42,233 bases of DNA from an uncultured delta proteobacterium (GCA_903894755.1 CAITRH010000488.1:1-42233); one strand, 5' to 3'. Counted from the stretch's first letter, positions 27,280 through 32,579 are shown. Made by a program: numbers and translations. The notes: generated from the sequence alone by a model not told the origin.

Positions 27280-29598
27280 TTACTCCCGGGAGCGAGCTAG
27301 CGCCTTGTACACCTGATCGGGATTCCATGCCCGCTCGTGGCAAGAGTAGAGCATGCGCCCCTCAAAAACCGCCCCCTCCAATGCCTCCGGCTGGTTCGGC
27401 CAACGTCCCACAAAAGTTCCCTTTGTAGCCCCATTCCGACCCGACACCCACTGCGGTACCTCGCCCTCTTGCTCAAACCACTGCGCTATCCGCTGCGTGT
27501 CCTGCGCACTCTCCATCCGCCCCACAATCTTGGTGCTGATATTGCCGAATGCATTGTAGTCAAGGGAACGAGGACTCTGCGTGCACACCAGACACGCCAC
27601 ACCGTACTTGCGCCCCTGCGCAAAAAGCCTCAAGAGCGACGCCTTGGCTGGAGGCTGGTGCGCACCGGCTGGAAGGAAATCGCGGGCCTCATCTAGGTAA
27701 AAGAGAAGATTGGGAAGCCCCGCGCGCAATGGTGCCTCCGTAACCATCCAACGGTAGATCTCGGAAGCAAGAGTCGCGACGAAGAAGTGCTTCTCGTCAT
27801 CGTCCCCCAAGGCATTCAGATAGAAGACATTGAGAGGCACCTTTCCCGAGACAGTCGGCGTAAGAAGCGCCTCCATAGACAACACCTGATCGCCATCCTG
27901 GAAAAGCCGAGAGCTAGGACCGGCCGCCAGTGCATACAGTCCCTGCGCAAGCTTGTTGCGCTCTGTCTTGGTAAGCAGATAGTCAGCATCATCGAAGCCA
28001 TATGCCGCCGGGTCGCGCAGAAGCTCCACAACATCGCGAAGCGTTGGCGTGACATCGCCCCGCTCTGCCAACAGCTTGAGAGCGCGAAACACAAACGCAC
28101 GTCGAGCCTTAGAGTCCCCCTTGATGCGGGCAAGATGTACCACGTTGCTCGCAAGACTGCTAAAGAGACCGTCCTCTTCCTCCTTGCGATGTTTCGGATC
28201 CACCCGTTCGAGTCCCGCTTTGCTGGGAAGATGCAAGGGATCCAAGGAAAGCCGAATCCCATGGGACGTTCCCGGGGTGTAAATACGCGGCTCCACCCGT
28301 TCGCGGAACCTCTCCGCTGCCTTTCGGTAGGCATGCGGAACGTCTTGCAATGGACGACCCTCGAGGAACTGTACCAAGTCCCCCTGTGGATCGATCGCAA
28401 GCACCGGCACCCCCGCGGCAATAGCTTCCTCCGCCATCACCTTAGCCAGCCACGTCTTGCCACTTCCAGCTGCCCCCACCACCGCCACATGAGTGTTGAG
28501 TACGTTGAAAGGAATAAACACCGGCGCTGTACCTGCCATTCCTAGGAATAGGTGGCCCTCTGGTTGCGTGACAGATTCCTCTGGCTCGTTAGGCGTCTCC
28601 TCCTCCTCCTCAAGAGGAGTGTCAGAAGGCGCCAGTGCGTCCACTTTGGGAGCGTCAAGGGTTCCTCGAGCAGAAAGCTCCTCCCAACGTTTTTCGTACG
28701 CTCCTTGGTCCTTGGGCCCCAAACGCTGCTCGCATTGGCCCAGCTTGTTCCACTTGCAGTCGACACAATGGGTGATATCCCCGGGAGGTTTGAGCCCCGT
28801 TTGACCGTGCTCGTCGTAGGCCGCCCAAGGGACCATGGATGCAAGAAGATCGTATACTTTCCCGCGCAGATCGTAGACCTGCTGCCAGGGACTCTCAACC
28901 AACTGACGTTGCGGATGGAGGTACAACACGCCCACGTCTGGCTGCGTTCCATATTGGTGGTGATGCATGAGCGCACAGGCCGAAACTTGGAACAGGTCGT
29001 GGTTCGGTTGATCGGCTGGTTTCAGCTTGTAGTCGACAATGCGCAATCGCTTCTGAAGGGGATCAAAGTACAGGTAATCTACAGCACCGGTAACCTGCAC
29101 CGGTTCCATAGGCTCGCCCAGCTGGAAGGTCACGTCGATTCGACGCCTTGGATCCCCGAAAACCTCCTGCAATACGGCCTTCGGTGGGATACCCACCCCT
29201 CGCGCTTGGAGCAAGAGTTCAGCAACCTCCCGGAGGTACCGCTGCAGTACCCTCGACAGGTTCAGCCCTAGGATCGCCGATTTCTCCAGAAGCGCCTCCT
29301 GAGGCACGCAGTTGGCCATCAGGAACTGCATCAGTCCCTCCCAAAGCGTGTCCAATTCCGTGGCGCGCTCAAGGACCGTTTCAATCTCCGGTGAGCTAGC
29401 GGCGAGGCTATTGAAACGGTCGATGATGTTGTGGAAAAAGTTTCCACCGGCAGCTTCGGACCTTCCAGTTTTCCAGATCCTCGAGCAGGCAGGAGTCTTC
29501 AGTCCCCTGGCACGGCTGTATTCGACGTCAAAATAGTGAATGCGTGGGCAGGTCGCTGCTATCCGAAGTTGCGTAACGGAAAAGTGGTAAAGCGTCAT
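27280..29598 (-). CDS. Cas4/RecB-like Fe-S nuclease fused to HerA-type ATPase
   Basis: 772 residues in two parts. Residues 1-295 form a Cas4/AddB-like PD-(D/E)XK nuclease: His56 (GNFFHNIID), Asp174 (GAVDYLYF), Asp189-Tyr-Lys191 (LRIVDYKLK), a motif-IV Gln204 (DLFQVSAC), and four iron-sulfur cysteines, Cys17 (ATCPRIHYF) plus Cys278, 281 and 289 (HCVDCKWNKLGQC). An acidic linker (325-345) leads to a HerA/FtsK-type ATPase: Walker A GAAGSGKT (375-382), Walker B LLFYLDEARDF (Asp636, Glu637), and QGRKYGVACLVCTQSPRSLD with a trailing arginine motif. This couples a DNA-pumping motor to an end-processing nuclease in one chain. ATG start overlaps the AAA+ gene stop (ATGA). Confidence 0.8.
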   Translation of the reverse strand: MTLYHFSVTQLRIAATCPRIHYFDVEYSRARGLKTPACSRIWKTGRSEAAGGNFFHNIIDRFNSLAASSPEIETVLERATELDTLWEGLMQFLMANCVPQEALLEKSAILGLNLSRVLQRYLREVAELLLQARGVGIPPKAVLQEVFGDPRRRIDVTFQLGEPMEPVQVTGAVDYLYFDPLQKRLRIVDYKLKPADQPNHDLFQVSACALMHHHQYGTQPDVGVLYLHPQRQLVESPWQQVYDLRGKVYDLLASMVPWAAYDEHGQTGLKPPGDITHCVDCKWNKLGQCEQRLGPKDQGAYEKRWEELSARGTLDAPKVDALAPSDTPLEEEEETPNEPEESVTQPEGHLFLGMAGTAPVFIPFNVLNTHVAVVGAAGSGKTWLAKVMAEEAIAAGVPVLAIDPQGDLVQFLEGRPLQDVPHAYRKAAERFRERVEPRIYTPGTSHGIRLSLDPLHLPSKAGLERVDPKHRKEEEDGLFSSLASNVVHLARIKGDSKARRAFVFRALKLLAERGDVTPTLRDVVELLRDPAAYGFDDADYLLTKTERNKLAQGLYALAAGPSSRLFQDGDQVLSMEALLTPTVSGKVPLNVFYLNALGDDDEKHFFVATLASEIYRWMVTEAPLRAGLPNLLFYLDEARDFLPAGAHQPPAKASLLRLFAQGRKYGVACLVCTQSPRSLDYNAFGNISTKIVGRMESAQDTQRIAQWFEQEGEVPQWVSGRNGATKGTFVGRWPNQPEALEGAVFEGRMLYSCHERAWNPDQVYKALARSRE

Positions 29599-31763
29599 GA
29601 TTTCCTCGGGACATGGCGGAGAATCAGGTCATCGTCTTGCGAGGTTGCATGGAGCTTCCCGTCCCGATGCATCGCCATGGCTACCTTTTTCAGTGAGGCA
29701 AACGTCTGCAGGGAGTCCGCTGTCTTTGTTACGGCACATAGCCGTACCTGCGCCTCGCGCGCTGTAATGGCAAACTTGAAAGCCAGATCTTTCCAAAGTA
29801 GCTCCTCGATCACCTTTGGGTCCAGACCTCCGTTGGGCAGAGGAGGTGGGACAATGCTGACACCGCCCTCTTCAGTGACGAACTCGTGGAGCAGTGGGTG
29901 CTTTTCAAAGGTCTTGAGCCGATGAAGACTCTCGTTGACCTCGTCCTCGGCCACTCGGGAGCTCTTGCCCTTCGGATGTTCTACTTCGAGGTCTCCCACT
30001 TTGGCAGCCCCCAACACTGACGACATGGCGTCTAGCTGGGCATACCCTTCGAGCGTCAGCTTCACATGGAGGAAGCGATCTGCCCCCTGGGCATTGAGCT
30101 TGTCGTATATCTCTGCGCCTTTCTTGCCAAGATGCAGGGGACGTCGCTCTTCGTCGGTCACCAGCACGCAGTGCTCCGGAGGACTGGTGTCGCCTAGAAT
30201 CCGCTGGATCGCAGCAAGGGCTCCGTTGCCATGATGGGAGGTGCAGTACACCACGCCGGTGCTGACCTCCCGTCCACTCTTGCGTCGCTCGTGGACCAGC
30301 AGGTCGTAACGCGGGGTCTTCGCGCCTCTCGCAGGCTTCGGCTTCTCGAAGGAGAGCAGCGTATATTGGCTCTCCCGATGAAGACACTTGGCAAGCAGCT
30401 TCTGCGTGAGCTCCGCAAGGTTGTTCTCATCAGGAGGAAGTGCCTGCGGTTCAAGCTTGTGCCGCGTTACCGATTCCACAAGCTTCGCCTGGACAAGCGC
30501 ATCGACCGCGTCTTCTCGAGGAACCACAGGTGGTGCGACTAGGAGACCTGTCTCTTTCCCGTGAGGCCACCCTTCGAGCCACGTCGAGTCGCCAAGCTTT
30601 GCCAGCAGTGCCTCCTGCTGCTCCCATGCCTCCCGCGCCCAAATAAGGATATCCCTGGGACGTATCTCGAGAGCGTTTCCCACGCAGTTTTGGAACCAGA
30701 GGGAACCCAAGGGGAAAAGAGTGTCGGCTTCGAGCTTGGCTCGGATATCGCGCCGGGAACTGAATCTCTTTCCAAGGGCCTGCAGCCGCTTCTGCACAAT
30801 GAGGCTGCCTGTTTCAGGCGTGACTCCGGTTAGCTGGATCCTAAACTGTCCAAGTCGATCCCACGCTGCCGTCGCAATGACCTGGCGATGGACGAAACTG
30901 GTCATCGTCTCCTGGACCCCCGCAATGAGCACCAGGATGTTCTTGGAACGATCGAGAAGAGCGTGCAGAAATGACGAGAGCGCTCGAACTCGGTCGTCGT
31001 CGAGGTTGTCGATCTGGTCGACACAAAGTACAAAGGGGCTCCCCAGCGAGCCGGCGAGCACCCCAATGGTCGAAAGGACTGCCAAAATCCCCGCGTCGTC
31101 TTCGATGGACGCGTCATCGTGGCTCGCACGCAAGCCCAGTTGCTTTGCAATCTCCGTATCGATAGGGTCACCGCCCAGCCAGGCCACTGCGGCTTCGGCA
31201 AGCTCGCGCGCTTGCGCATCTCCGTGATCGGCTTTCGTAGCGGCTTCCCAGAAGGCCGCGAGAACTGAGAAGAGCTCGCTGGTTCCACGTGTGCCCGCCA
31301 TGTGTTGGAGGCAACTGTAGACTCGTTTCCGGTCTACCTCGCCCTTTTGCTTGGTGATAGCTGTCCCCGCGGCAGCATCCACAACGGCAAAAAGAGCGGT
31401 CCGGGTGAGGCGATCAGGCAAACCGGAGCCGAGCAGACTGATCACCGAGCGCAGTAGATGCCGCGGCATGCGCTCAGGGGACGCCAACAGGTTCTGAAGG
31501 TAGACATAGACCGCCCCCTGCCGTTTCTTTGTCGAACGTCCCACGCGCCCAAGGAGATGACTCTTGCCAACACCAGGACCTCCAAGGATCGCTGCCCCCA
31601 AAGAGCAGTCGTTTTTGTGGACATCGTCGACAAGACCAAGAATGCGCTCGAACTGCTCCTTGTAGGCCGTGGGGACATCAACGTCCGTGTCAAGTGGGGA
31701 GTGGTCAGTGACACGATTGCGGATAAACGGGTTCGATCCCAATCGCAGGTGCTGGGTGCTCAT
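29595..31763 (-). CDS. AAA+ ATPase of Cas4::HerA operon
   Basis: 722 residues. An AAA+/ORC-like ATPase in the N-terminal half: NPFIRNRVTD entry, Walker A GGPGVGKS (61-68), Walker B VLCVDQIDN (245-253) and a sensor-like LVLIAGVQETM strand. The region 465-590 has an alpha/beta look (RYDLLVHERRKSGREVSTGV, HCVLVTDEERRPLHLG) that could be a degenerate nuclease or binding fold, but I cannot assign catalytic residues. The C-terminus (about 650-722) looks like a winged-helix unit. It could load or regulate the HerA motor. Lies 3 bp after the upstream small gene and overlaps the fusion gene by 4 bp. Confidence 0.75.
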   Translation of the reverse strand: MSTQHLRLGSNPFIRNRVTDHSPLDTDVDVPTAYKEQFERILGLVDDVHKNDCSLGAAILGGPGVGKSHLLGRVGRSTKKRQGAVYVYLQNLLASPERMPRHLLRSVISLLGSGLPDRLTRTALFAVVDAAAGTAITKQKGEVDRKRVYSCLQHMAGTRGTSELFSVLAAFWEAATKADHGDAQARELAEAAVAWLGGDPIDTEIAKQLGLRASHDDASIEDDAGILAVLSTIGVLAGSLGSPFVLCVDQIDNLDDDRVRALSSFLHALLDRSKNILVLIAGVQETMTSFVHRQVIATAAWDRLGQFRIQLTGVTPETGSLIVQKRLQALGKRFSSRRDIRAKLEADTLFPLGSLWFQNCVGNALEIRPRDILIWAREAWEQQEALLAKLGDSTWLEGWPHGKETGLLVAPPVVPREDAVDALVQAKLVESVTRHKLEPQALPPDENNLAELTQKLLAKCLHRESQYTLLSFEKPKPARGAKTPRYDLLVHERRKSGREVSTGVVYCTSHHGNGALAAIQRILGDTSPPEHCVLVTDEERRPLHLGKKGAEIYDKLNAQGADRFLHVKLTLEGYAQLDAMSSVLGAAKVGDLEVEHPKGKSSRVAEDEVNESLHRLKTFEKHPLLHEFVTEEGGVSIVPPPLPNGGLDPKVIEELLWKDLAFKFAITAREAQVRLCAVTKTADSLQTFASLKKVAMAMHRDGKLHATSQDDDLILRHVPRKS

Positions 31764-31766
31764 GGA

Positions 31767-32579
31767 CTATTTCCTCACGACATACACGAGAAGCCGTCCA
31801 GCTTCAGTGATTCCAGCGTCTCGCTCATCATCGGAGAGCTGCACGTGGCGTCCATCGGGGCTGTCAAGACCGAATTTATTGTGGATCCGAAGCTCCCGAA
31901 GGCCGATGTCAAAACGTTCGCGGGAACACCAAGCAAGGGCGTTTCGAAGTGGCAGGAGCGGCACGAAGTTGAGTTCACCGGTTTCGCGGTCAAGGCGCGT
32001 GAAGGCGAGGTCAAAGGCTGTGGCGAAGTCCTCTTCGGTGAGCTGCTCGGTAGTCGTTGCAAGGGGCTCCGCCTTCGGAGGCTCGGCTTGAACAGGCTGG
32101 CTAAAGGCGCGGGCCTCGGCAACAAGGAACAAGTAGCTGGCTTTTTTTACGGCAATGACTCCCACCGTCGACGGGAGCGAGCAGGCCGTCATGCGCAAGT
32201 CGAGGGCTTCACGGAACGCCACTTTGAGCTTTCCGGGGAGAAGCTTTGCCAGGTCGGCTTCGGTGAACCCGTGCGTTTTGCCTTTGCGAGCGCGTCGCAG
32301 GTGATGCTCGAGGAACGTGTCGGAGCCTAGGAAATCGGGGAGATCGTGGGGACGAAGGACATAGGCGTCGCACTTTTCTGCGGACGTTGCGGACTCGGAA
32401 GTGGTGAGGAAAGCAACGCGTTTGAAGGCAGCGGAGTTGACAGCTTTGATTGACGCCGCGTCGTGACTCACGCCGGCCAGGTCGAAGAGCTGCCGCAGCG
32501 TTGGGGGCTCGGTGCAGGTCTGAATGGTCTTGACGAGTTTGGTGACGAGGTCTTCATTGGGAGCCATTTTTGAGGGCAT
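31767..32579 (-). CDS. Putative DNA-binding protein heading the operon
   Basis: 270 residues. The N-terminus (EDLVTKLVKTIQTCTEPPTL, then RQLFDLAGVSHDAASIKAVN) has a helix-turn-helix-like pattern. A central hydrophobic strand pair (STVGVIAVKKASYLFLVAEA) is followed by a proline-rich linker. The C-terminal region (EEDFATAFDLAFTRLDRETG, then NFVPLLPLRNALAWCSRERF) looks like a second winged-helix domain. No catalytic motif. It could recognise DNA or act as an adaptor for the AAA+ protein. I do not recognise a named family. Alternative start at the Met four codons in (MAPNED). Confidence 0.55.
   Translation of the reverse strand: MPSKMAPNEDLVTKLVKTIQTCTEPPTLRQLFDLAGVSHDAASIKAVNSAAFKRVAFLTTSESATSAEKCDAYVLRPHDLPDFLGSDTFLEHHLRRARKGKTHGFTEADLAKLLPGKLKVAFREALDLRMTACSLPSTVGVIAVKKASYLFLVAEARAFSQPVQAEPPKAEPLATTTEQLTEEDFATAFDLAFTRLDRETGELNFVPLLPLRNALAWCSRERFDIGLRELRIHNKFGLDSPDGRHVQLSDDERDAGITEAGRLLVYVVRK

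What the first reader, a model, noticed from the sequence alone, without database searches (positions are those of the whole stretch)
27280..32579. Operon fusing a Cas4-like Fe-S nuclease with a HerA ATPase, plus AAA+ and small putative DNA-binding protein
Seen: three genes with overlaps/gaps of 3 to 4 bp on the minus strand. The last encodes a Cas4/AddB-type nuclease (His56, Asp174, Asp189-x-Lys191, Gln204, four Fe-S cysteines) joined in one chain to a HerA/FtsK motor with Walker A and B. Known: in archaea HerA works with NurA, and several bacterial defence systems pair HerA with an effector nuclease as separate proteins; Cas4 is usually free or fused to Cas1. Inference: an ATP-driven end-processing or phage-DNA-degrading machine with its own AAA+ partner. 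I know of no named system with this layout, but I could not search.
Basis: partly seen in the sequence, partly recalled or inferred. Interest (0 to 1): 0.92.

Follow-up and report, generated by a model that had tools for sequence, protein, structure and literature searches.

The report
Predicted DNA-capturing nuclease motor defence operon
Three adjacent genes encode a DNA-loading ATPase, a probable DNA-binding protein, and a DNA-cutting enzyme fused to a DNA-pumping motor; this matches a kind of bacterial anti-invader machine predicted in 2024 but apparently never tested, and the ATPase gene proves to be swapped between related strains, pointing to it as the part that recognises the target.

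Summary
Three minus-strand genes (27280-32579) encode a 270-aa probable multi-winged-helix protein, a 722-aa AAA+ ATPase, and a 772-aa chain joining a Cas4/AddB-type Fe-S PD-(D/E)XK nuclease to a HerA motor. The same operon, in the same order, occurs in 69 cyanobacterial loci, a Pseudanabaena plasmid, a Chromatiales MAG and six other genomes of the window's own family. Fe-S cysteines are near-invariant and the active site is kept in 67 of 71 nucleases. The motor differs by lineage: HerA here, FtsK-alpha+FtsK in cyanobacteria, often with an added DEDD exonuclease. The ATPase models as Orc/CDC6 AAA+ followed by a REase-like block and a probable winged helix. This matches the "Orc/CDC6-coupled HerA/FtsK capture systems" predicted in NAR 2024 (PMC10853773), so the kind is known in silico; I found no experimental test. 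New here: (1) in cyanobacteria the nuclease and small protein track flanking genes while the AAA+ gene does not, showing allele replacement; (2) in three close relatives of the window's family, only the operon is shared in 19.5 kb. Both favour an anti-invader module with the AAA+ as exchangeable specificity part. Function is inferred. New member of a known kind.

The parts
31767..32579 (-). Small protein C (270 aa), predicted multi-winged-helix DNA-binding protein; first gene of the operon
   Evidence: AlphaFold model of 56-sequence alignment with helical/winged-helix blocks, mean pLDDT 65; Foldseek hits are largely winged-helix proteins but none significant; conserved gene upstream of AAA+ in other loci
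31779..32036 (-). Best-modelled C-terminal winged-helix block of protein C (residues 182-267)
   Evidence: pLDDT mostly 83-93 over 181-240
29595..31763 (-). AAA+ ATPase of Orc/CDC6 type (722 aa)
   Evidence: AAA_16 2e-9, BrxC_BrxD 5.2e-5; model pLDDT 80; VIA Z 17.0 to archaeal ORC2 1w5t, 16.1 to Cdc6 1fnn
30594..31661 (-). AAA+ core and lid (residues 35-390); Walker A G61-x4-GK67, Walker B D249 followed by an amide (Q250)
30000..30518 (-). alpha/beta block with restriction-endonuclease-like strand order and no complete D-(D/E)xK set (residues 416-588); candidate inactive REase
   Evidence: secondary structure of the model, residue counts; fold not searched alone
29616..29819 (-). C-terminal winged-helix-like block of the AAA+ protein (residues 649-716)
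   Evidence: secondary structure of the model, moderate to low confidence
27280..29598 (-). Nuclease-motor fusion (772 aa)
28720..29598 (-). Cas4/AddB-type PD-(D/E)XK nuclease domain with four Fe-S cysteines (residues 1-293; C17, H56, D174, D189, K191, Q204, C278, C281, C289)
   Evidence: PDDEXK_1 5.5e-14; conservation in 71 sequences
27331..28557 (-). HerA-type translocase domain (residues 348-756; Walker A K381, Walker B D636-E637)
   Evidence: DUF87 7.9e-12, HerA_C 5.6e-8; PDB HerA matches; alignment with five relatives

Best explanation
A three-component anti-invader DNA-restriction machine of the predicted Orc/CDC6-coupled HerA/FtsK capture class. Proposed working: the winged-helix protein C and the Orc/CDC6-like AAA+ bind a feature of invading DNA and load or clamp onto it (inferred). 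The AAA+ is the exchangeable recognition or activation part (allele replacement in cyanobacteria is shown; the role is inferred). It hands the DNA to a ring of the nuclease-HerA fusion, whose motor pumps double-stranded DNA (inferred from HerA/FtsK family knowledge). The Fe-S PD-(D/E)XK nuclease in the same chain cuts the DNA as it passes (active site conserved; activity inferred).
For: Same gene order and strand in several bacterial phyla. Nuclease active site kept in 67 of 71 and Fe-S cysteines in 70-71 of 71. Motor domain exchanged between HerA and FtsK, and an extra DEDD exonuclease gained, while partners stay the same. AAA+ models as Orc/CDC6. All core domains match the published predicted class. 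Conflict-type evolution: in 36 cyanobacterial loci nuclease and C distances follow the flanking parA (rho 0.84 and 0.72-0.73), AAA+ distances hardly do (0.26); 13 of 18 supported splits in the AAA+ N-terminal tree conflict with the nuclease tree, against 2 of 18 for a control part of the nuclease protein. DNA shows replacement tracts nearly confined to the AAA+ gene: L095/L117 about 92% before, 65% in, 93% after. Some loci carry two C-AAA blocks, three AAA genes in all, before one nuclease gene (L089, L126). In three close relatives in the window's family 19.5-kb stretches share only the operon and a few hundred bases upstream, at about 90%. One locus adjoins type I restriction-modification genes.
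Against: No phage or plasmid challenge was found. In many cyanobacteria sampled the operon sits at a fixed site beside parA and often valS and is vertically inherited, unusual for a mobile defence module. The window's own neighbours found by family search are housekeeping genes (nadA, rpoD, dnaG), not a defence island. PADLOC has no match for C or the AAA+. The AAA+ lacks the usual Walker B catalytic acid, so it may bind but barely hydrolyse ATP. No modification or self-recognition gene was recognised in the operon, so self/non-self discrimination is unexplained.
Confidence: 0.6

Rival explanations
1. A housekeeping DNA-end processing, recombination or chromosome-maintenance machine, analogous to HerA-NurA or AddAB, with an Orc-like loader. 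In cyanobacteria it would serve multi-copy chromosomes together with the neighbouring ParA.
For: Fixed locus and co-inheritance with parA and valS in many cyanobacteria; AddB/Cas4-type Fe-S nuclease and FtsK-alpha motor are typical of repair and segregation; housekeeping neighbourhood in the window.
Against: Patchy presence: 30 of 244 sampled cyanobacteria have a strong AAA+ match and 7 of 184 genomes of the window's order; replacement of the AAA+ gene between near-identical strains; operon at different sites in close relatives; motor-less copies and some catalytically dead copies tolerated.
Confidence: 0.25
2. A module of selfish elements (plasmid or integrated element) used for their own maintenance or competition with other elements.
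For: A conjugative plasmid carries it; operon shared without flanks in three related genomes.
Against: No integrase or replication gene was found tied to the operon in the loci examined (search limited); most copies are chromosomal and stably inherited in cyanobacteria.
Confidence: 0.12

Closest known systems
Orc/CDC6-coupled HerA/FtsK capture systems (PMC10853773, predicted 2024, no experiment found)
   Same: Orc/CDC6 AAA+, active REase, HerA/FtsK motor from more than one source (with and without FtsK-alpha), wHTH components, 3'-5' exonuclease fused to the motor in some members
   Different: The part of the paper read does not mention a Cas4/AddB-type Fe-S nuclease, the AAA+ allele replacement, or the fixed parA/valS locus; whether this exact HerA single-chain form is in its figure or supplement could not be read
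DndFGH (DptFGH) restriction module
   Same: Three genes; a REase plus captured HerA/FtsK motor in one chain (DndH), a multi-wHTH subunit (DndG)
   Different: DndH is about 1700 residues with eight core domains; here 772 residues and two domains. PADLOC finds no Dnd match for C or AAA+; only the motor's Walker A region weakly matches DndH (E 0.012)
HerA-NurA and HerA-effector defence pairs
   Same: HerA-type motor with a nuclease partner
   Different: Nuclease is fused, of PDDEXK_1/Cas4-AddB type with Fe-S cysteines; scores far below curated HerA equivalog cut-offs (30.5 vs 800 bits)
Cas4 / AddB / UvrD-Cas4 fusions (PMC5704561)
   Same: Same nuclease superfamily (pfam12705) and Fe-S cysteine pattern; fusion to a DNA motor
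   Different: Motor there is an SF1 or SF2 helicase; no FtsK or HerA in that paper's text. TIGR00372 Cas4 score 13.4 vs cut-off 65
MADS (mad8)
   Same: mad8 is the best PADLOC match of the motor domain (2e-18)
   Different: Match covers only the motor; the other two genes match no MADS component

Membership tests
Orc/CDC6-coupled HerA/FtsK capture system (PMC10853773) | Orc/CDC6-family AAA+ ATPase | tested here: met
   Model pLDDT 80; best structural matches are archaeal ORC2/Cdc6/ORC1 at Z about 16-17
Orc/CDC6-coupled HerA/FtsK capture system (PMC10853773) | Inactive REase between AAA+ core and C-terminal wHTH | tested here: inconclusive
   Residues 416-588 have REase-like strand order, lack a complete D-(D/E)xK set in the consensus and in the window, and are followed by a wHTH-like block; block not modelled or searched alone
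Orc/CDC6-coupled HerA/FtsK capture system (PMC10853773) | Active REase (PD-(D/E)XK) | tested here: met
   PDDEXK_1 5.5e-14; catalytic residues in 67 of 71 homologs; activity itself untested
Orc/CDC6-coupled HerA/FtsK capture system (PMC10853773) | HerA/FtsK translocase, acquired from different sources in different members | tested here: met
   HerA in window and relatives; FtsK_alpha+FtsK in cyanobacteria with the same partners
[quoted passage not shown]
   Protein C model mean pLDDT 65, hits to winged-helix proteins not significant
Orc/CDC6-coupled HerA/FtsK capture system (PMC10853773) | 3'-5' exonuclease fused to the HerA/FtsK protein (subset) | tested here: met
   DNA_pol_A_exo1 7.4e-29 in the Nostocales homolog; exonuclease-nuclease-FtsK form in 51 cyanobacterial loci; absent in the window
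Orc/CDC6-coupled HerA/FtsK capture system (PMC10853773) | Restriction of invading DNA | not testable with these tools
   Needs experiment
DndFGH | DndH of about 1700 residues with eight core domains; DndF and DndG partners | tested here: not met
   772-aa protein; C and AAA+ match no PADLOC model at E up to 1
CRISPR Cas4 | Passes Cas4 equivalog cut-off; beside cas1/cas2 | tested here: not met
   TIGR00372 13.4 bits vs 65; no cas gene among the ten neighbour ORFs searched
HerA-NurA / anti-phage HerA equivalogs | Passes curated HerA cut-offs; separate partner nuclease | tested here: not met
   30.5 bits vs 800 for the Thermoproteota HerA model, all others also far below cut-off; nuclease is in the same chain

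The most novel reading that the evidence does not exclude
The Orc/CDC6-like AAA+ gene is the exchangeable specificity determinant of HerA/FtsK capture systems, swapped between strains in the way HsdS is swapped in type I restriction, while the nuclease-motor is inherited vertically. Spare C-AAA units in some genomes would share one nuclease-motor effector. This would give the class a self-contained, modular recognition mechanism without DNA modification.
Probability: 0.4. Interest if true: 0.75.

Novelty: new member of a known kind. Interest (0 to 1): 0.5.

Why it matters
[quoted passage not shown] I found no experimental study of the Orc/CDC6-coupled kind. This operon gives a compact three-gene version with motor, nuclease and Fe-S cluster in a single chain, suited to reconstitution. 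The finding that the AAA+ gene is replaced between sister strains while its neighbours are not turns the open question of what such systems recognise into a direct allele-swap experiment. The HerA-for-FtsK exchange in one operon also shows that the motor is a generic part.

Tried and rejected
A single-protein scan of genome contigs with the full 772-aa protein found nothing; the two-sequence nuclease profile then found 70 loci. The same profile found nothing in viral contigs, and the window AAA+ found nothing on plasmids. Most phylum-wide hits to the 772-aa protein were HerA-only proteins in other contexts and were set aside. Plasmid hits in Methylobacterium, Nonomuraea and Tsukamurella are HerA-only. 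The Synechococcus plasmid AAA hits had no trio neighbours. A CRISPR Cas4 reading, HerA-NurA, DndFGH and MADS were considered and not adopted. Whether the window operon was inserted beside nadA could not be decided: relatives' nadA loci with 1.5 kb flanks show neither the operon nor the MBL gene. The REase-like block was not searched alone (no structure jobs left). A weaker subfamily of the AAA+ in cyanobacteria (L165, L166) was seen but not resolved. The paper's supplements could not be opened.

Full report
Observation. The 772-aa protein matches PDDEXK_1 (5-236, 5.5e-14) and HerA central domain DUF87 (358-468, 7.9e-12); the 722-aa protein matches AAA_16 (2e-9) and weakly BrxC/BrxD; the 270-aa protein matches nothing in Pfam. 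NCBIfam gives no curated name to any of the three, and PADLOC matches only the HerA and Cas4-like parts of the first.

Relatives. A tblastn search of plasmids with the nuclease-HerA protein hit the N-terminus of a 'DNA translocase FtsK' on a Pseudanabaena plasmid. Its two upstream genes are homologous to the window's other two, in the same order. A two-sequence nuclease profile then found 70 loci in the genome collection: 69 cyanobacterial and one Chromatiales MAG. In 63 of 70 all three genes were recognised; five of the other seven are cut off by the contig start. The Chromatiales version is the HerA type and is closest to the window (nuclease 43% identical). A search of the window's order found strong AAA+ matches in six further genomes of its own family. 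The HerA-type trio was read there where the contig allows; one copy is frameshifted between nuclease and motor, and one contig ends inside the nuclease gene.

Architecture. Cyanobacterial homologs carry FtsK_alpha+FtsK where the window has HerA, and in 51 loci also an N-terminal DEDD 3'-5' exonuclease. Motor-less forms exist (exonuclease+nuclease, or nuclease alone). Four sequences show catalytic substitutions, D174 to N, D/E189 to N, K191 to Q and Q204 to A, each in four of 71; by count and context I take these to be the four motor-less Okeania copies (inference, not listed row by row). The Fe-S cysteines persist in 70-71 of 71 sequences.

AAA+ and C. An AlphaFold model of the AAA+ (56 sequences, pLDDT 80) gives an Orc/CDC6-type ATPase (Z 17.0 to A. 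pernix ORC2; TnsC, BrxC and RdrA lower), then an alpha/beta block with REase-like strand order (416-588) and a winged-helix-like end (649-716). The residue after the Walker B aspartate is Q or N in 55 of 56 sequences, so ATP binding may matter more than hydrolysis. Protein C models as winged-helix-like blocks, at low confidence.

Known class. PMC10853773 (NAR 2024) predicts 'HerA/FtsK capture systems' in which a HerA/FtsK, with or without FtsK-alpha, is coupled to an Orc/CDC6 ATPase with an inactive REase between AAA+ and wHTH, an active REase, wHTH proteins, and sometimes a 3'-5' exonuclease fused to the motor. PMC12839542 (NAR 2026) extends the theme to BREX-related capture. The window operon fits this class. 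I found no experimental study of it, but the library lacks most subscription journals.

Evolution. In cyanobacteria the trio is often followed by a ParA-like gene and, in 19 loci with all three genes, valS lies nearby. Nuclease and C distances track valS (rho 0.81, 0.74) and parA (0.84, 0.72-0.73); AAA+ distances do so poorly (0.46, 0.22-0.26). Trees agree: 13 of 18 supported splits of the AAA+ N-terminal part conflict with the nuclease tree, against 2 of 18 for a control section of the nuclease protein; C is intermediate, 6 of 20. C and AAA+ distances co-vary once nuclease distance is removed (partial 0.35, Mantel p 0.002, whose script stopped after this line). Alignments show the replaced tracts: L095/L117 92%, then 65% through the AAA+ gene, then 93%; L094/L108 87%, 65%, 85%; in L072/L073 a central part of the AAA+ gene fails to align between 79% and 92% blocks. 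Two loci have two C-AAA blocks, three AAA genes in all, before one nuclease gene (L089, L126). In the window's own family, three loci about 90% identical across the operon and a few hundred bases upstream share nothing else in 19.5 kb at the search threshold; the four AAA+ alleles there are about 91% identical, so no swap is seen in that group.

Interpretation. Replacement of one gene inside a vertically inherited operon, together with movement of the whole operon between sites in another lineage, is what I would expect of a conflict system with a polymorphic recognition part (inference by analogy with HsdS). Against this stand the fixed cyanobacterial locus and the housekeeping neighbourhood in the window. 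I put anti-invader restriction at 0.6, housekeeping DNA processing at 0.25 and a selfish-element module at 0.12.

Limits. Target, nuclease activity, motor direction and self-protection are all untested. The inactive-REase and winged-helix assignments rest on models. Allele replacement was inferred from distances, split conflicts and alignment breaks, not with a recombination-specific method. Pairwise distances are not independent; Mantel permutation was used only where stated.

Noticed in passing
L070:13072-14010 and equivalents in many cyanobacterial loci: A ParA/MinD-like ATPase gene lies just downstream of the nuclease-FtsK gene in many loci and travels with it, next to valS; whether it is part of the system is unknown.
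   Followed up: partly
window 29595-31763, residue 250: The AAA+ has Q or N in place of the usual Walker B catalytic acid in 55 of 56 family members, suggesting slow or absent ATP hydrolysis.
   Followed up: partly
L125, L129, L135, L137 (Okeania): Motor-less nuclease genes; four family sequences have catalytic residues substituted while the cysteines are kept, most likely these four.
   Followed up: partly
L161:503-5389: HerA-type operon directly beside type I restriction-modification methylase and specificity genes, with a PDDEXK_13 nuclease on the other side.
   Followed up: partly
L062:5634-8771 (another contig of the window's genome): A single 1045-aa open frame joins an AAA_16/STAND-like ATPase and a HerA domain; possibly a one-chain relative of such systems.
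   Followed up: no
L057:8130-10010: HerA-like ATPase fused to an FHA domain in one frame.
   Followed up: no
L063:1310-5447: Beside the operon on the Pseudanabaena plasmid lie a SNF2-type helicase (ZorD/DpdE-like in PADLOC) and a SWIM zinc-finger gene, divergent.
   Followed up: no
L163 (unnamed relative, operon copy): Nuclease and HerA parts are in different reading frames, a frameshift in the linker or a sequencing error.
   Followed up: no
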